From a virus: DNA of 38,638 nucleotides. Location: the IMG/VR virus record IMGVR_UViG_3300042938_000134, positions 1-38,638 of that record; one strand, 5' to 3'. Shown piece by piece: positions 1,779-38,464 of this stretch. A model generated the notes under the pieces. The model was not told the origin of the DNA and did no database searches. It worked only from the letters and a program-made list of their open reading frames with translations. Within the stretch, counting starts at the first letter, position 1; each line of letters opens with the position of its first letter. A program made the translations under genes and the position numbers.

Positions 1779-2275
1779 TGCTACCAATACCCTTACCTTG
1801 GCTCATTGTTGGTGTCTTGGTCTCATTATTCGGTACATACCGAGTGGGCCACCACTACGGGTGGCTGGAGCGCGACAATGACATGAAGATTGCCATTGCC
1901 CAAAAGAATGATGAGGCCAGAGTTACCGAGCAAAAACTTAACGAGCAATTAAATGCAAACGCAACCAAGTTACAGGAGACCACTAATGTCATCAATCAAA
2001 AGCAGTCTGCCCTTGATCGTGCTATTCGCTCTGGCAGGGTGCGCATCTCAGCCCCCAGTTGTGTTCAAGCCAGCGCAAGTGCCACCATTACCGCCCCAGA
2101 TAGCAAAGAAGCAGGAAGCCAACTTGACAGACCGGCTGACCCAGCTCCTGATGCCGAGCGAGAAACCCTCCAAGCCATTGCCGAAATAGTGGCCCAAGGT
2201 GACAGGAACACGGCCCAGCTCAATGCCTGCATTGATGCCTATAACGAAGTAAGGAGTTTGGTCAATGGTCAATAG
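1778..2275 (+). CDS. Inner-membrane spanin Rz (copy A)
   Basis: 165 residues with the layout of an i-spanin: an N-terminal signal anchor (about residues 4-21), then a long periplasmic helical region with coiled-coil character (about 30-80), and a C-terminal segment with Cys and a YNEVR motif common in Rz proteins. With its outer-membrane partner Rz1, encoded inside this gene in the +1 frame, it would fuse inner and outer membranes at the last lysis step. It overlaps the endolysin start by 11 nt. The second copy (37405-37881) shares the layout but is strongly diverged in the periplasmic part. Confidence 0.8.
   Translation: MLPIPLPWLIVGVLVSLFGTYRVGHHYGWLERDNDMKIAIAQKNDEARVTEQKLNEQLNANATKLQETTNVINQKQSALDRAIRSGRVRISAPSCVQASASATITAPDSKEAGSQLDRPADPAPDAERETLQAIAEIVAQGDRNTAQLNACIDAYNEVRSLVNGQ
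1986..2189 (+). CDS. Outer-membrane spanin lipoprotein Rz1, nested in Rz (copy A)
   Basis: A 67-residue frame lies wholly inside Rz in the +1 register. I take ATG 1986 (MSSIKSSLPLIVLFALAGC) because it gives a proper signal peptide followed by lipobox LAGC; an in-frame upstream start at 1953 would place 11 extra residues before it. The mature protein is short and Pro-rich (KPAQVPPLPPQ), the hallmark of Rz1-type o-spanins. The same nested frame with the same lipobox exists in the second copy (37616-37858), which supports genuine coding. Confidence 0.8.
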   Translation: MSSIKSSLPLIVLFALAGCASQPPVVFKPAQVPPLPPQIAKKQEANLTDRLTQLLMPSEKPSKPLPK

Positions 2276-2858
2276 TCAGCAGCTCCAACAACTGCACATT
2301 GGCCCAGAGTGGGTCGATGCGCTCAATGAGACTTTCCAGCGCTTTGACATTTCAACGCCATTGCGCCAGGCTGCCTTTATTGGCCAGTGTGGCCATGAGT
2401 GCGGTAATTTCAAGGTGCTTCAAGAGGGTCTGTCATATTCTGCTGCCGGACTGATGAAGACATGGCCCAAGCGCTTTGATGCTGAAAAGGCCCAAGCCTG
2501 TCAGCGAAATCCAAAGCTCATTGCCAATGTCGTTTACTCTAATCGCATGGGAAACAGGGATGAGGCTTCTGGGGATGGGTGGCGTTTCAAGGGAAGAGGC
2601 TGCATCCAGCTGACTGGCTCTAGCTCTTATTTTCACGCTGGCAAGGCTTTGGGTGTTGACTTCTGGGCCAACCCGGAACTGGTGGCCACACCCCAGTATG
2701 CTGCGCTGACTGCCGGATGGTTTTGGGACACTCACAAGCTCAACCAGTATGCGGATAGTCAAGACTACAAGACCATGACCAAAAAGATCAATGGCGGCTT
2801 TATTGGCCTAGATGACCGGATCAAACACATCAACCATGCACTGTCTGTCCTGACATAA
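2265..2858 (+). CDS. Endolysin, GH19 chitinase-like lysozyme (copy A)
   Basis: 197 residues of glycoside hydrolase family 19, which in phages cleaves peptidoglycan glycan strands. Visible motifs are GHECGNF (catalytic Glu45), a second candidate acidic residue at Glu100 in RDEASGDG, the conserved GRGCIQLTG (about 110-118), and KINGG..GLDDR near the C-terminus. There is no signal peptide, so release presumably depends on a holin. Start ATG 2265 is preceded by AAGGAG at good spacing inside the end of Rz. The second copy is 37871-38464. Confidence 0.9.
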   Translation: MVNSQQLQQLHIGPEWVDALNETFQRFDISTPLRQAAFIGQCGHECGNFKVLQEGLSYSAAGLMKTWPKRFDAEKAQACQRNPKLIANVVYSNRMGNRDEASGDGWRFKGRGCIQLTGSSSYFHAGKALGVDFWANPELVATPQYAALTAGWFWDTHKLNQYADSQDYKTMTKKINGGFIGLDDRIKHINHALSVLT

Positions 2859-12846: not shown

Positions 12847-13326
12847 TTAAATAGCGTATTGGTCTAATGTTTTATGGCACTTTGCAATTTGCTCTTCTGC
12901 CATAAATACATATTCAGTGTGGCCATCAAAGCGGCCTAGTCTCTCTTTTGTTTGCTGATCAATATTGGTCCCAATTGCCAGCAGCTCTTTTTCAATTTTC
13001 CCAGCGTCTAAATTGACTTTTGTAAATCTAATCACTTGAAGGTCAAGCCCTGATTTGCGCGCATTGTCATAAGCGCGTTGCATGATTCGACCATCAGAGG
13101 AAATGCCAACTTTGTAAACATTCTCAAAGTCAGGGTCTAAAACTTTGGCCAAATACACAATGTTTCTTTTGTGATTTGTTTCCATGTGGGCGCTGATTCG
13201 TGTCCAAATTCCAAGTTTTCTAGCAGTAGCATAAGCACCACCATGAAAATCCTGAAAATCAACTTTTCTGGTGTACTGCTTTGCTAGCTCTTCAAGTTTC
13301 TCAACAGTCCAATTTGTGTAACTCAT
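12847..13326 (-). CDS. GIY-YIG / T5orf172-like free-standing endonuclease
   Basis: 159 residues. The N-terminal ~48 residues (LEELAKQYTRKVDF...GAYATARKLGIWTRISAHM) match a small DNA-binding-type module often fused to phage homing endonucleases. The second part has the GIY-YIG pattern: IVYLA (56-60), YKVGIS (71-76), Arg80/Arg84, a candidate catalytic Glu in AGKIEKELL (108-116), and a late GRFDGHTEYVF motif. Such proteins nick DNA and spread as homing endonucleases or act in repair. It is transcribed away from the Cro-like gene. Catalytic competence cannot be judged without alignment. Confidence 0.6.
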   Translation of the reverse strand: MSYTNWTVEKLEELAKQYTRKVDFQDFHGGAYATARKLGIWTRISAHMETNHKRNIVYLAKVLDPDFENVYKVGISSDGRIMQRAYDNARKSGLDLQVIRFTKVNLDAGKIEKELLAIGTNIDQQTKERLGRFDGHTEYVFMAEEQIAKCHKTLDQYAI

Positions 13327-15529: not shown

Positions 15530-16537
15530 ATGCAACATGAAACCCGAAAACACGCCCGACTCTCAGCATCCCGCACAGACAGATTCATGTCTTGCCCAGG
15601 CTCATACCGGCTTGAATCCCTCATGCCTTATGAGCCAGCCGGTGAAGCCGCTGCCATTGGCACAGCGATCCATGAACTGTCTGAGATCATTCTGCGCAAT
15701 GGTGAAGTACCAGCCGGAACTGATCCTGACCATGTGGCCATGGCCCAAGGCTATGCAGACTTTGTCAACACTCTGGTCGAGAATCCGAGGAAAAAGCTGA
15801 TCGAGGTCAACCTCGATGAAGGTTTGAAGTCTCTGCACCCAGCACTTGGTGGCACTGCTGATGCTGTTCTTGTCGATGGCAACCATCTCCATGTCATTGA
15901 TCTGAAGACTGGCCGTGTGGCCGTAGAGGCCGAAGACAACAAGCAGCTGCTGACCTATGCCCTTGGCGCCATGCGCCAGCTTAAAGCGCCAAACACCATC
16001 GAATGCACTATGCACATCTACCAGCCGCGGGTCGGCCACAGCAAGTGGACAGTGTCTGGCCTGCGTCTGGAGCTACACGGCAGGCGCTTGCAGTCAGCAG
16101 CCGAGCTGGCGCTCACAAGCGATGCACCAACCCATCCAAGCCCAGATGCCTGCCGGTACTGCAAGGCCAAGACCATTTGCCCCAGTATGCGTGAGAAGGT
16201 CCAAGAGACCGCTAGGAACGATTTCAAGCCTGACACCACTGTCACCCCTGAGATGCTCGATGACGCGGCTCTAGTGGCCGCATGGGCCGAGTCTGTGCAG
16301 TCTGCCGCCAAAGAGCAGTTGACCAGTGGCAAATCCATCCAAGGCTGGACCATGCGCATGGGCCGCAAGACAAAGTTTTGGAAAGATGAGGCGCTGGTCC
16401 AAGAAGCATTCAAAGACTTGCTTATTGCATGGGAACTTAAAAGCCCCAGTGCTGTCTCAAAACTTGGTATCGAGATATCCGAAAACCTAGTCGGTGAGAA
16501 GGTGGCTGCGGCTTCTTTGGTAAGGAGTAAAGAATAA
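15530..16537 (+). CDS. DUF2800 / RecB-like PD-(D/E)XK nuclease with Fe-S type cysteines
   Basis: 335 residues. The nuclease core is visible: GGTADAV (Asp111), VIDLKTG (Asp124, Lys126) and NKQLLTY (Gln139). Cys22 in SCPGS together with Cys208, Cys211 and Cys217 matches the split four-cysteine layout of AddB/Cas4-like Fe-S nucleases. In DUF2800 members of phage modules the enzyme is thought to act as a recombination exonuclease, often beside DUF2815. Preceded by a CTGGAGAAACC leader, and its stop overlaps the next start (TAATG). Confidence 0.8.
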   Translation: MQHETRKHARLSASRTDRFMSCPGSYRLESLMPYEPAGEAAAIGTAIHELSEIILRNGEVPAGTDPDHVAMAQGYADFVNTLVENPRKKLIEVNLDEGLKSLHPALGGTADAVLVDGNHLHVIDLKTGRVAVEAEDNKQLLTYALGAMRQLKAPNTIECTMHIYQPRVGHSKWTVSGLRLELHGRRLQSAAELALTSDAPTHPSPDACRYCKAKTICPSMREKVQETARNDFKPDTTVTPEMLDDAALVAAWAESVQSAAKEQLTSGKSIQGWTMRMGRKTKFWKDEALVQEAFKDLLIAWELKSPSAVSKLGIEISENLVGEKVAAASLVRSKE

Positions 16538-19287: not shown

Positions 19288-19579
19288 TTTGTGGGATGAG
19301 AGGGTTTTTTGCCATGAATGCCAACATTCGTGCATGGTCGAGCAGCGCCAGTCCATGCCAGCAGAGCAGATGGAAAGACACCGGAAGGTCAACTCAAAAC
19401 CACTCCAGTGGATGTTTGACCAGGCAAAGGTCAAAGGTGGTTGGGCAACTGTCACATGGTCCGAACACCAGTGTGGCCAGACCGGCCTCGCGGCATTCCC
19501 AACCGATGTCAAGCACCGGTGTCATATGTTCCAGACCAAAGCCTCGGCAGTAGAATCCGAGGAATGGTGGTTGACTTAA
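19247..19579 (+). CDS. Hypothetical Cys/His-containing protein
   Basis: 110 residues from ATG 19247, with a strong GGAGGT ribosome site 9 nt upstream. Cys/His residues (CHECQHSC near residues 22-29; further Cys and His at about 74-93) suggest a metal-binding fold. Its 5' coding end contains two perfect DnaA boxes. It overlaps the VRR-NUC start by 16 nt. No family recognised. Confidence 0.6.
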   Translation: MVQQVEQLSTAYPHLWDERVFCHECQHSCMVEQRQSMPAEQMERHRKVNSKPLQWMFDQAKVKGGWATVTWSEHQCGQTGLAAFPTDVKHRCHMFQTKASAVESEEWWLT

Positions 19580-19944
19580 AACGCAAACGAAAAAGCATTG
19601 AACACATTGACCAGGTCAAAGTGGTGCAACACTTTCGAGCGTTCTATCCGGACATCATCATTGCAGCAATACCCAATGGAGGCGATAGAACGGCCTCAGA
19701 GCGCGTTAGATTGCACAGTGAAGGGGTATTGGCAGGGATGCCTGATCTGTGCGTCTTGGAGCCTAAAAACGGCTTTCATGCGTTATTTGTGGAGATGAAG
19801 ACCAAGGCCGGTGTGGTCTCAAGCAAACAAAGTGCTGTAAATTTGCAGTTAAATGCAAAAGGGTATCGAGCAGTGGTCGCCAGATCAGCTGCCGAAGCAA
19901 TCAAATCAATCGAGGAATATCTGAATGGCAACACCAAAACGTAA
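19564..19944 (+). CDS. VRR-NUC domain nuclease
   Basis: 126 residues from ATG 19564, preceded by CCGAGGA; a longer upstream reading overlaps the previous gene. The whole protein is one VRR-NUC domain: AAIPNGG (35-40), GVLAGMPDL (54-62, Asp61), FVEMKT (75-80, Glu77 and Lys79) and SSKQ (86-89, Gln89), the catalytic pattern of PD-(D/E)XK-like VRR nucleases. Stand-alone phage members probably resolve branched DNA during replication or packaging. Overlaps the small terminase gene by 20 nt. Confidence 0.85.
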   Translation: MVVDLKRKRKSIEHIDQVKVVQHFRAFYPDIIIAAIPNGGDRTASERVRLHSEGVLAGMPDLCVLEPKNGFHALFVEMKTKAGVVSSKQSAVNLQLNAKGYRAVVARSAAEAIKSIEEYLNGNTKT

Positions 19945-28910: not shown

Positions 28911-30133
28911 ATGGCTATCGTAAGTAACACGTTCTTGACTTACTCTGCAAAGGGTATTCGGGAAGATTTGAGCAATATCATTACAAATATTGCGCCTTAA
29001 CTTGAGGGCCGTTGCAGAGTAATTTGCAATTGACACTAGGAGAATTGCTGGAAACCCCTAACGGATAGGCAGCCGAGGGCAATCAGCAGCCGAGCCTCAA
29101 AAGAGGAAGGTTCAACGACTAGATCGAAAGATCGTAGGACCAAGTGGTCCGAAGCACCTAGCCCCACGAAAGTGGGTGAAGATATAGTCTGATCTGCATA
29201 GAAATATGCAGTCCCGTAAGGGAGGCAAGGTTTAACGAGCCTTGTTCAACATAGATGGAAGAAACGCCTTATATGTCAAACATTGGCCGTGAAAACGTGT
29301 CCAACGCATTGTTTGAATATCAGACCGATACATTGGCCGCAGCTGCTGCCAATGCCCAGTTAGAGGGTGATGATGTTGCATCATTTGACTCTGTGACTGC
29401 TACTGTACGTTTGCAAAACTACGCACAGATTTCACGCAAGACAATCATCTTGTCAGCCACTGAAGAAGTGGTCAACAAGGCAGGCAGGCGCTCAGAATTG
29501 GCCTACCAAATCGCGAAAAGGGGCGCTGAATTACGTCGCGACCAAGAATTCGTGATGTTGAATGGTGGTATCGCTGTCGCTGGTGACTCCACTACTGCCC
29601 GTGTGACTGCTTCTTTGGGTGCGTTTATCAAGACGAACACTGACAAGCAGACCAATGGTACTGATCCATCTTATACAACGCTGCCAAACAGCGCCCGTAC
29701 TGATGGCAATGTGCGCACATTCACTGAAACCATTCTTAAGAATGTGATTCAGAAAGTGTGGACACAAGGTGGTACACCTAAGATTTTGATGTGCGGTCCT
29801 GTTAACAAGCAGCGCGTGTCAGGCTTCTCTGGTATTGCCTCAAGCCGTTTCAACATTGATGGTGGTGCAAAGCCTGCCACATTGGTCGGGGCCGTTGACA
29901 TTTATGTCAGCGATTTCGGCAATGTGCAAGTGATTGCAAACCGCTTCCAGCGTGAGCGTGATGCATGGGTGATTGATCCTGACTACGCCAAGATGACTGT
30001 GCTGCGCCCTTACCAGCAAGTCGAATTGGCCAAGACTGGCGATGCTGAAAAGCGTATGCTGATCGTGGAATGGGGCCATAAAGTTACGGCTGAAAATGCC
30101 CACGGCTTGGCTGCTGACTTGATCACTTCTTAA
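28911..30133 (+). CDS. Major capsid protein (SU10 type), interrupted by a group I intron; join(28911..28997,29258..30133)
   Basis: Exon 1 (28911-28997) encodes 29 residues, MAIVSNTFLTYSAKG... ending IAP; exon 2 begins EETPYMSNIGRENVSN. Joined they give 320 residues with the conserved N-terminus of SU10-type major head proteins (AIVSNTFLTYSAKG.REDLSN..Y/TNI.P..TP..SNIG). Neither part is complete: exon 1 is followed at once by TAA, and the 29255 ATG that opens a 292-residue frame lies in the last three bases of the intron without a ribosome site. GAGGAAATT precedes ATG 28911. The capsid protein assembles on the upstream scaffold; a strong terminator follows at 30148. Confidence 0.88.
28998..29257 (+). 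ncRNA. Self-splicing group I intron (IA-like) in the capsid gene
   Basis: 260 nt, beginning after U 28997 and ending at G 29257. P1: exon GCCU with intron U pairs to AGGGC, giving a U.G at the 5' site. P2 TTGCA/TGCAA; P3 CTAGG (29036-29040)/CCTAG (29157-29161); P4 TTGCTG (29045)/CAGCAG (29084); P5 CCCT/AGGG; P6a CCTC-AAAA-GAGG; P7 GACTA (29117)/TAGTC (29185); P7.1 GATC-GAAA-GATC; P7.2 GGACC/GGTCC; P8 CCCAC-GAAA-GTGGG; P9 CTGCATA-GAAA-TATGCAG; P9.1 TCCC-GTAA-GGGA; P9.2 CAAGG/CCTTG. The R element (GTTCAACGACTAGA) and S element (AAGATATAGTCTGA) are textbook matches. P7.1/P7.2 indicate the IA group typical of T4-like introns. No reading frame inside. Confidence 0.92.
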
Positions 30134-37405: not shown

Positions 37406-37881
37406 TGTTTGGAATACCACTCCCTTGGATTGCATTTGCTGTGGGCATTGCCCTGCTTGGCTCATACAAAGGCGGCTATCACTATGGATGGACAGACAGG
37501 GACAATGACATGAAGCTGGCCATTGCCCAAAAGAATGAAGAGGCCAGAGCCAAAGAGGCAGAGCTTGGCACTAAATTGATTGATCAGGAAACGAAACTCA
37601 GAAAGGCCCAAGATGATGTCAAGAAAAAACAGTCTGCTATGCATGAGCTTGCTCGCACTGGCCGGCTGCGGCTCCCAGCCCCAAGTTGTCCACAAACCAA
37701 TGCAAGTACCCCCATTGCCCTTGGAAATCCACAACCCACAGATACCACTGAAACCGAACTTGAGCGACAGACTATTGCAGCTCTTATCGACATCGCAGCC
37801 GAAGGAGACAAAGCAATCACCAAGCTCAACGCCTGCGTCAGCGCCTACGAAGAAGTAAGGAGAATTGTCAATGGTCAATAG
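37405..37881 (+). CDS. Inner-membrane spanin Rz (copy B)
   Basis: 158 residues with N-terminal signal anchor (MFGIPLPWIAFAVGIALLGSY), a coiled coil about 30-85, and C-terminal Cys and YEEVRRIVNG motif. The anchor-proximal DRDNDMK.AIAQKN.EAR block and the C-terminus match copy A; the region in between, which also encodes Rz1, is highly diverged. Overlaps the endolysin start by 11 nt. Confidence 0.8.
   Translation: MFGIPLPWIAFAVGIALLGSYKGGYHYGWTDRDNDMKLAIAQKNEEARAKEAELGTKLIDQETKLRKAQDDVKKKQSAMHELARTGRLRLPAPSCPQTNASTPIALGNPQPTDTTETELERQTIAALIDIAAEGDKAITKLNACVSAYEEVRRIVNGQ
37616..37858 (+). CDS. Outer-membrane spanin lipoprotein Rz1, nested in Rz (copy B)
   Basis: 80 residues from ATG 37616 (or 37613, one residue longer), nested in the +1 frame of Rz. 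Signal peptide SLLCMSLLALAGC with lipobox LAGC; mature part Pro-rich (MQVPPLPLEIHNPQIP) and longer than in copy A, with a Ser/Thr/Pro/Lys tail. It keeps the VPPLP core of copy A. Confidence 0.8.
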   Translation: MSRKNSLLCMSLLALAGCGSQPQVVHKPMQVPPLPLEIHNPQIPLKPNLSDRLLQLLSTSQPKETKQSPSSTPASAPTKK

Positions 37882-38464
37882 TGAGCAATTGTCTAGGCTG
37901 CACATTGGTCCAGAGTGGGTCGATGCGCTCAACGAAACATTCCAGCGCTTTGATATTTCAACGCCACTGCGCCAGGCTGCCTTTATCGGCCAGTGTGGCC
38001 ATGAGTGCGGCAATTTCAGAATCCTTGAAGAGAACTTGAACTACAGAGCAGAAGCACTGCAAAAGCTCTGGCCCAAGCGCTTTGATGCGGCCAAGGCACA
38101 GATGTGTGCCAAGAATCCCAAGCTCATTGCCAACACTGTCTACAGCAGCCGAATGGGCAACCGAGATGAGGCAAGTGGTGATGGATACAGATTTAGAGGC
38201 CGTGGGTGCATCCAGCTCACAGGGTCTGCGAACTACCACCATGCTGGCAAGGCGCTGGGTGTGGACCTGATCATGCAGCCCGAGCTGGTGGCCACACCCC
38301 AGTATGCTGCGCTGACTGCCGGATGGTTCTGGGACACCCACAAGCTCAACCAGTATGCAGACAACCAAGACTATCGGACCATGACCAAAAAGATCAATGG
38401 CGGGTTCATTGGCCTCGATGACCGCATCAAGCACATCAACCATGCCCTGTCTGTCCTGACATAA
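37871..38464 (+). CDS. Endolysin, GH19 chitinase-like lysozyme (copy B)
   Basis: 197 residues from ATG 37871, preceded by AAGGAG; a TTG two codons earlier is less likely. Catalytic GHECGNF (Glu45), Glu100 in RDEASGDG, GRGCIQLTG and KINGG..GLDDR are all retained. Compared with 2265-2858, substitutions cluster in residues about 49-82 and 105-135 and are few elsewhere. Function as for copy A. Confidence 0.9.
   Translation: MVNSEQLSRLHIGPEWVDALNETFQRFDISTPLRQAAFIGQCGHECGNFRILEENLNYRAEALQKLWPKRFDAAKAQMCAKNPKLIANTVYSSRMGNRDEASGDGYRFRGRGCIQLTGSANYHHAGKALGVDLIMQPELVATPQYAALTAGWFWDTHKLNQYADNQDYRTMTKKINGGFIGLDDRIKHINHALSVLT

What the first reader, a model, noticed from the sequence alone, without database searches (positions are those of the whole stretch)
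28998..29257. Compact group I intron inside the major capsid gene
Seen directly: the SU10-type capsid reading frame stops after 29 codons and resumes 260 nt later in phase, and the intervening RNA folds into P1-P9.2 with canonical R and S core elements, a U.G at the 5' site and a terminal G at the 3' site. Established: IA introns with P7.1/P7.2 occur in phage genes such as T4 td and nrdB. An intron in the capsid gene of a small P22/SU10-like podovirus is uncommon, and its site between IAP and EETP lies in the most conserved N-terminal stretch of the protein.
Basis: partly seen in the sequence, partly recalled or inferred. Interest (0 to 1): 0.92.

Follow-up and report, generated by a model that had tools for sequence, protein, structure and literature searches.

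The report
Mobile group I intron in capsid gene
A small RNA that is predicted to cut itself out interrupts the main shell-protein gene of a virus of bacteria, and related viruses carry sister introns at other places in the same gene, which makes it a good place to study how such introns move without an enzyme of their own.

Summary
The finding is real. Window 28998-29257 is a 260-nt group I intron with P7.1/P7.2 and no reading frame of its own, inside an SU10-type major capsid gene. Support: Rfam RF00028 at 79.3 bits, covariation, and empty sites: 72 of 79 readable near relatives lack exactly these 260 nt.

The wider picture is more interesting. Related contigs carry introns at five places in this gene (A-E), up to three at once. 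Presence at site A is scattered as if at random on the capsid-gene tree (21 changes for 23 carriers; shuffles 18-23). Carriers share an exon flank that none of 169 empty alleles has, and near-identical pairs show short exon tracts that differ together with the intron. I read this as gain by DNA-level homing. Yet the intron encodes no endonuclease, no clear homing endonuclease was found in the window, and HNH_3 occurs in only 8 of 50 related records. One contig (L127) has the same intron at another site. Splicing is inferred, not shown. Capsid introns and multi-intron phage genes are already in print, so this is a new member of a known kind.

The parts
28911..28997 (+). Exon 1 of the major capsid gene (29 codons, ends IAP; 3' end GCGCCT)
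   Evidence: joined directly to exon 2 in 72 of 79 readable relatives
28998..29257 (+). Group I intron, 260 nt, with P7.1/P7.2 and no reading frame of its own (site A)
   Evidence: Rfam RF00028 79.3 bits; empty sites; covariation
28994..29009 (+). P1: 28994-28998 with 29005-29009; U28997.G29006 marks the 5' splice site; guide GGGC pairs with exon GCCU
   Evidence: helix 1, 100% of cells paired, both-side changes between site-A and site-C introns
29011..29030 (+). P2: 29011-29018 with 29023-29030
29036..29161 (+). P3: 29036-29040 with 29157-29161 (pseudoknotted with P7)
29046..29111 (+). P4 (29046-29051/29083-29088), P5 (29056-29059/29076-29079 with a short extension), P6 (29089-29091/29109-29111), P6a (29095-29098/29103-29106)
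29117..29189 (+). P7: 29117-29121 (GACUA) with 29185-29189 (UAGUC), invariant in 26 sequences
   Evidence: Rfam alignment
29122..29150 (+). P7.1 (29122-29125/29130-29133) and P7.2 (29137-29141/29146-29150)
   Evidence: that this pair of helices marks subgroup IA is recalled
29163..29176 (+). P8: 29163-29167 with 29172-29176
29194..29246 (+). P9 (29194-29200/29205-29211), P9.1 (29212-29215/29220-29223), P9.2 (29224-29233/29237-29246)
   Evidence: the inner pairs of P9.2 are poorly kept (11 and 18 of 26 unpaired at two pairs)
29257..29257 (+). Terminal intron G (3' splice site)
29258..30133 (+). Exon 2 of the major capsid gene (291 codons plus stop, starts EETP)
   Evidence: PF17236 E=8e-83; phrog_1328 major head protein

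Best explanation
It is a compact, endonuclease-less group I ribozyme. It folds in the capsid mRNA, pairs its guide GGGC with the last exon bases GCCU, cuts itself out with a guanosine cofactor and joins IAP to EETP, restoring a 320-residue capsid protein (inferred from anatomy and empty sites; the chemistry is established for the family, recalled). It spreads between related phages by gene conversion into intron-less capsid genes during mixed infection, copying short stretches of flanking exon with it (inferred from footprints). The cut that starts this is most likely made by an endonuclease supplied in trans, from elsewhere in the genome or by a co-infecting phage (not shown). The same gene has been colonised at four other places by related introns; those at A, C, D and E have guides that fit their sites, and the one at B is a site-A intron at a second GCCT. 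The confidence below is for a capsid-gene group I intron that splices and is mobile; for the trans-endonuclease step alone I would say 0.6.
For: Intron. Exact excision: (72 empty, 7 occupied, 1 unreadable of 80). After removal of the mapped introns, 50 of 50 carriers whose capsid match starts at residue 1 read open, 48 of them at 74% identity or more. Mobility: site-A presence needs 21 changes for 23 carriers on a 172-locus capsid tree with the flanks of sites A and B left out, shuffles mean 21.9, range 18-23. Footprints: flank CGCCT|GAAGA[AG]ACGCCTT in 25 of 25 carriers and 0 of 169 empty alleles, 16 of 210 not located; L126 against L064: 0 differences at nt 1-83, 7 at 84-108, 0 at 109-191 of the coding sequence, junction at 87/88; L097 against L127: differences at 87, 90, 96, 99, the next ones at 54 and 178. 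A precise loss would leave the flank behind; none of 169 empty alleles has it, so I infer more gains than recent precise losses. Guides fit each site by the U.G rule: A GCCU:GGGC, C ACGU:GCGU, D GGCGU:GCGCC, E GCUU:GAGC (read by eye; P1 of A and C counted).
Against: No RNA evidence of splicing. No homing endonuclease is identified: HNH_3 in 3 of 20 site-A records and 5 of 30 records without site A, GIY-YIG in 1 of 50, none in the window in either; LAGLIDADG and other HNH models were not searched in six frames. The window's only candidate, 12850-13326 (-), is weak (T5orf172 17.6 bits, cut-off 20; phrog_681 'endonuclease' E=2e-6) and absent from the other 49 records. Many records are fragments. 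Part of the carrier flank may simply be required by P1 (-4 to -1): several of the 24 nearest pairs differ there only, for example L100/L233 at -1 and L016/L005 at -4 and -1. The binned difference profile is only weakly raised at the junction. The flank motif was written after seeing carriers, so 25 of 25 is by construction; 0 of 169 is the informative half. Old loss scars could have been erased by silent changes. Capsid exons recombine, which scrambles the tree. In 15 of 74 carriers a stop remained after removal: 6 are cut short (L103, L222, L227, L230, L243, L244) and 9 are 62% identical or less, where my boundaries or starts were extrapolated and not followed up.
Confidence: 0.9

Rival explanations
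1. The intron moves mainly at RNA level: the freed intron reverse-splices into capsid mRNA at short guide matches, is copied to DNA and recombined in.
For: No endonuclease in the intron. L127 carries the site-A intron (2 differences in 260 nt from L097/L122) at another place in the same gene after GCCT, the guide target, with site A empty. Introns at A, C, D and E each fit a 4-5 nt target (read by eye).
Against: At site A and at site B the downstream exon differs over a short tract, as after DNA gene conversion (L127 against L097 and L122, 0 of 77 nt differ upstream and 10 of 62 nt just downstream of site B). The nearest relatives have G, not T, before site B; T there is found in 6 of 201 capsid genes, L127 and five at 85% identity or less to the query that fitted best, so the target would have needed a prior or later change. 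No reverse transcriptase was sought.
Confidence: 0.15
2. The intron is inherited from an ancestor and lost many times; scattered presence reflects loss.
For: Presence and absence mix on the tree; the change count cannot tell gain from loss. Site C shows some clustering (15 changes for 23 carriers, shuffles 19-23).
Against: Precise loss would leave the carrier flank; 0 of 169 site-A-empty alleles has it. L064 and L126 are identical for 83 nt on either side of the differing tract. For site C 2 of 170, and for site D 10 of 181, empty alleles carry the flank motif, so losses are possible there.
Confidence: 0.08
3. The insert is a broken or unspliced element and the capsid is made from the downstream ORF that starts at the ATG at the intron's 3' end (29255).
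For: An ORF of 292 codons starts at 29255; the site-A introns read end in ATG.
Against: Exon 1 stays intact and conserved upstream in the carriers; the core covaries; no obvious ribosome site just before 29255 (by eye).
Confidence: 0.03

Closest known systems
Mycobacteriophage LittleE major capsid intron (PMC3706429, passages read)
   Same: Probable group I intron in a major capsid gene, present in one phage and absent from close relatives; removal shown there by RT-PCR and N-terminal sequencing.
   Different: LittleE's is 819 bp with a LAGLIDADG-like reading frame, in an HK97-type capsid of a temperate siphovirus; here 260 nt, no ORF, SU10-type capsid, splicing untested.
Multi-intron genes of Bastillevirinae phages (PMC11878797, passages read)
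   Same: DNA polymerase and terminase genes there are split by one to three group I introns, most hits being to subgroup IA models.
   Different: Most of those introns (32 of 45) hold homing nucleases, and 'capsid' does not occur in that paper's main text; the capsid-gene introns measured here are 259-319 nt, too short for one.
Collaborative (trans) homing of ORF-less introns by free-standing endonucleases (review PMC3984707, passages read)
   Same: ORF-less intron moved by an endonuclease encoded outside it, with co-conversion of flanking exons.
   Different: No partner endonuclease identified here.
Vibrio phage 1.232.O capsid gene, MG592596 (L271)
   Same: Related group I intron (83.1 bits) that by eye splits the annotated capsid gene of a named phage, with an HNH gene just after the capsid stop.
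   Different: Different capsid family (Phage_capsid_3 only below cut-off), a different site, and an HNH neighbour that the window lacks.

Membership tests
Group I intron (Rfam RF00028) | Covariance-model match above the gathering score | tested here: met
   79.3 bits against 50
Group I intron (Rfam RF00028) | P3/P7 pseudoknot and P4-P6 core conserved by covariation | tested here: met
   P3 and P4 with compensatory changes; P6 and P7 invariant, hence uninformative; P7 is in the Rfam alignment
Group I intron (Rfam RF00028) | U.G pair at the 5' site and terminal G at the 3' site | tested here: met
   U28997.G29006, kept in 26 of 26 sequences; G29257
Group I intron (Rfam RF00028) | Precise removal restores the host reading frame | tested here: met
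   72 empty relatives of 79 readable join exactly there
Group I intron (Rfam RF00028) | Guanosine-dependent self-splicing | not testable with these tools
   needs RNA
Subgroup IA (P7.1/P7.2) | Two hairpins between P7 5' strand and P3 3' strand | tested here: met
   29122-29150; subgroup meaning recalled; no subgroup models on hand
Homing intron with its own endonuclease | Endonuclease ORF inside the intron | tested here: not met
   260 nt; no ORF of 60 codons or more lies wholly within it
Trans (collaborative) homing | Co-conversion of flanking exon with the intron | tested here: met
   clustered differences in near-identical pairs and the flank association; the averaged profile is weak
Trans (collaborative) homing | Identified free-standing endonuclease that cuts the empty site | tested here: inconclusive
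   HNH_3 in 8 of 50 records, not linked to intron presence; L119 and L098 have HNH genes about 0.4 and 1.0 kb downstream of the capsid gene; none found in the window; cutting not testable
SU10-type major capsid protein | PF17236 match | tested here: met
   E=8e-83 for exon 2

The most novel reading that the evidence does not exclude
The capsid gene of this phage group is a hot spot for an endonuclease-less intron family that homes site-specifically by enzymes supplied in trans by co-infecting phages, keeps re-invading alleles almost independently of phage descent, and has moved from one site of the gene to another (A to B), so that in some phages three ribozymes must all splice for one shell protein to be made.
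Probability: 0.4. Interest if true: 0.75.

Novelty: new member of a known kind. Interest (0 to 1): 0.57.

Why it matters
[quoted passage not shown] Here one short phage gene, common in the viral contigs searched, offers occupied and empty alleles at several sites, with near-identical pairs that show the footprint of single events. It also shows a blind spot in annotation: site-A introns end in ATG, so a gene caller can start the capsid gene at the intron's last codon and miss both exon 1 and the intron.

Tried and rejected
Host: one genome-contig scan gave a single distant relative (53%) in a Desulfuromonadales MAG, so the host stays unknown. Resident endonuclease: 44 window ORFs were scanned, 39 against Pfam (some of them also against PHROGs) and 5 against PHROGs only (14291, 15530 and 21685; 16537 and 27650); further short ORFs were not scanned by profile. 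Apart from the weak candidate 12850-13326 the nuclease-like hits were a VRR-NUC domain (19441-19941) and a recombination-type exonuclease family (15530-16534), which I do not count as homing endonucleases. I first read L127 as a clean insertion with native flanks and so as reverse splicing; one search showed that the downstream 62 nt differ from its nearest relatives, so that reading was withdrawn. The distance-binned co-conversion profile was not striking (0.114 against 0.089 in controls at -12..+2); single positions (-1: 0.88 against 0.24; +9: 0.67 against 0.36; but -4: 0.58 against 0.45) and the near-identical pairs are. P10 pairings of 3-4 nt can be drawn by eye but are too short to count. 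IS-linked introns (IStrons) were not pursued: a 260-nt insert has no room for a transposase gene. Literature: searches listed no report that I recognised of introns in SU10-type capsid genes or of five sites in one phage capsid gene; I saw the listings, and passages of six papers, no whole text; papers outside the held library are not covered.

Full report
Observation. The capsid frame from 28911 stops after 29 codons (IAP, then TAA) and resumes at 29258 with EETP. Exon 2 is an SU10-type major capsid protein (PF17236, E=8e-83; phrog_1328); neighbours are an SU10 portal, a scaffold and an SU10 adaptor. The 260 nt between them match Rfam group I introns at 79.3 bits, E=1e-18, the only RNA-family match above threshold in the window. 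The window record is a 38,638-base virus record in which RF00028 gives this one match.

Structure. The energy fold alone gives P1, P2, P3, P4-P6, P7.1, P7.2, P8 and three P9-type hairpins (z=-3.95); P7 was added as GACUA/UAGUC and a conflicting small helix removed. I aligned 26 introns: 16 of 28 full-length site-A/B contigs' introns and 10 of the 36 site-C rows; sites D and E were not included. 97.4% of cells pair, 35 of 78 pairs change on both sides, and sliding the partners by 1-3 columns lowers pairing to 34.5-47.9%. Limits: the structure was taken from one of the sequences; most both-side changes are the single split between site-A and site-C introns, counted many times; one of five measures (further pair types, 51 against 60.3 in shuffles) does not exceed the shuffles; P6 and P7 never vary; inner P9.2 pairs are poorly kept. 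P1 changes on both sides between A and C introns while the U.G pair stays in 26 of 26.

Empty sites. Of the 80 best IMG/VR relatives of exon 2 (a capped list), 72 have exon 1 joined directly to exon 2, 7 have exactly 260 nt at the same place, and 1 lacks upstream sequence. The eight GenBank phage relatives fetched are also uninterrupted there. This is the test that could have refuted the finding, and it did not.

More sites. An exact 27-base core pattern gave 43 IMG/VR stretches: 28 at site A, 1 (L127) elsewhere in the capsid gene, and 14 not in this capsid gene, whose genes I did not identify. Mapping the capsid protein onto the contigs and further scans showed related introns at YV|SDFG (site C, 264-267 nt), in the ELA-YQ codons (site D, up to 319 nt; a diverged one with another guide in L225 and L242) and at ML|IVEW (site E, 315 nt, three contigs). 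The 35 stretches of the site-C scan carry it at this place of a capsid gene (L228 and L236 with strongly diverged exons; L244 cut at its 5' end); the 21 stretches of the D/E scan gave 18 D and 3 E. L100 and L117 hold A, D and C together: three introns in a 320-codon gene, each matched by Rfam. In the examples that I read by eye (A, B, C, D, E and the L225 type) an in-frame stop comes within about nine codons if the RNA is not spliced. Lengths of 259-319 nt leave no room for a usual endonuclease gene. Of 231 capsid contigs counted once, 74 carry at least one intron; that set is enriched, because pattern scans supplied carriers, and 16 groups of contigs have identical coding sequences. The less biased figure is 7 of 79 for site A. 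After removal of the mapped introns 50 of 50 carriers readable from residue 1 are open; 15 of the 74, cut short or at most 62% identical, keep a stop and were not followed up; the other 9 are open but not readable from residue 1.

Movement. On a tree of 172 capsid genes with the flanks of sites A and B removed (not those of C and D), site A needs 21 changes for 23 carriers (shuffles 18-23, mean 21.9), D 9 for 9 (shuffles 7-9), C 15 for 23 (shuffles 19-23). So A and D look unrelated to capsid descent and C partly related. Carriers of A share CGCCT|GAAGA[AG]ACGCCTT in 25 of 25 against 0 of 169 empty alleles (16 of 210 not located); C 29 of 30 against 2 of 170 (11 of 211 not located); D 10 of 10 against 10 of 181 (20 of 211 not located). 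The motifs were written from carriers, so the empty-allele half is the informative one. For the single -1 T the split is 25 of 25 against 20 of 169. Near-identical pairs show the event: L126 against L064, no differences at nt 1-83, seven at 84-108, none at 109-191; L097 against L127, four differences at 87-99, neighbours at 54 and 178. Not all pairs are so clear: the 24 carriers differ from their nearest empty relative at 1 to 9 of the 30 nt around the junction, some only at -1 or -4, which P1 alone would demand, and the binned profile is only weakly raised. Since a precise loss would leave the flank, and no site-A-empty allele has it, I infer mostly gains.

Site B. L127's capsid gene has site A empty (TCGCCG|GAGGAAACTCC) and the intron between LAAAA and SNAQ, in frame. 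Its intron differs at 2 of 260 nt from those at site A in L097 and L122, the next nearest being 95.8%. Upstream of site B, L127 equals L097 and L122 over 77 nt; the 62 nt downstream differ at 10. L097 and L122 have GCC where L127 has TCC. I infer that the intron reached site B in some lineage and that L127 probably received it by conversion from that unsampled lineage. It rests on one contig. A chance misassembly would need an overlap far longer than the few bases (GCC or GCCT) that the two sites share, so I think it unlikely, but it was not tested with reads.

Enzyme. Among 50 related records HNH_3 occurs in 3 of 20 with site A and 5 of 30 without, GIY-YIG in 1; many records are fragments. 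L119 and L098 have HNH genes about 0.4 and 1.0 kb downstream of the capsid gene, as does Vibrio phage 1.232.O just after its own capsid gene. That is the kind of layout that collaborative homing would need (review passages), but the partner for the window's intron is not identified.

Known or new. Capsid introns are in print: LittleE, with Tuc2009 cited there (passages). Phage genes with up to three group I introns are in print (passages). I recognised no report of this system in searches. I file the element as a new member of a known kind; what is unusual is the density, the polymorphism and the footprints in one short structural gene.

Noticed in passing
29255-29257 (and the site-A introns read): The intron ends in ATG, so an ORF finder reports a 292-codon capsid ORF from 29255 and hides exon 1 and the intron; a truncated protein from unspliced RNA is conceivable.
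   Followed up: partly
L127, capsid gene near nt 178 of the coding sequence: Same intron as site A at a second place of the gene, with a downstream exon tract that differs from its nearest relatives.
   Followed up: yes
L271 (Vibrio phage 1.232.O, MG592596), locus 755-1715: An unannotated group I intron appears to split the annotated major capsid gene, with an HNH gene right after the capsid stop.
   Followed up: partly
L225 4370-4618 and L242 3535-3783 (-): A diverged intron at the site-D codon whose guide GGGC fits GCCT, where other site-D introns have a guide for GCGT: by eye, P1 co-variation at one site.
   Followed up: partly
window 12850-13326 (-): Weak GIY-YIG/T5orf172-like protein on the opposite strand (17.6 bits, cut-off 20; phrog_681 endonuclease E=2e-6), absent from 49 related records searched.
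   Followed up: partly
window 2265-2858 and 37865-38464: Two glycoside hydrolase family 19 (chitinase-like, perhaps lysin) genes near the two ends of the record.
   Followed up: no
L127 capsid coding nt 312-363 against L097: A second block of dense differences in a close pair, around site D though neither has an intron there.
   Followed up: no
L090, L102, L105, L112, L118, L124; L094, L095, L099, L101, L106, L107, L111; L108: Other viral contigs with sequences that share the intron core; L090, L094 and L108 were checked and match RF00028; the host genes were not identified.
   Followed up: partly
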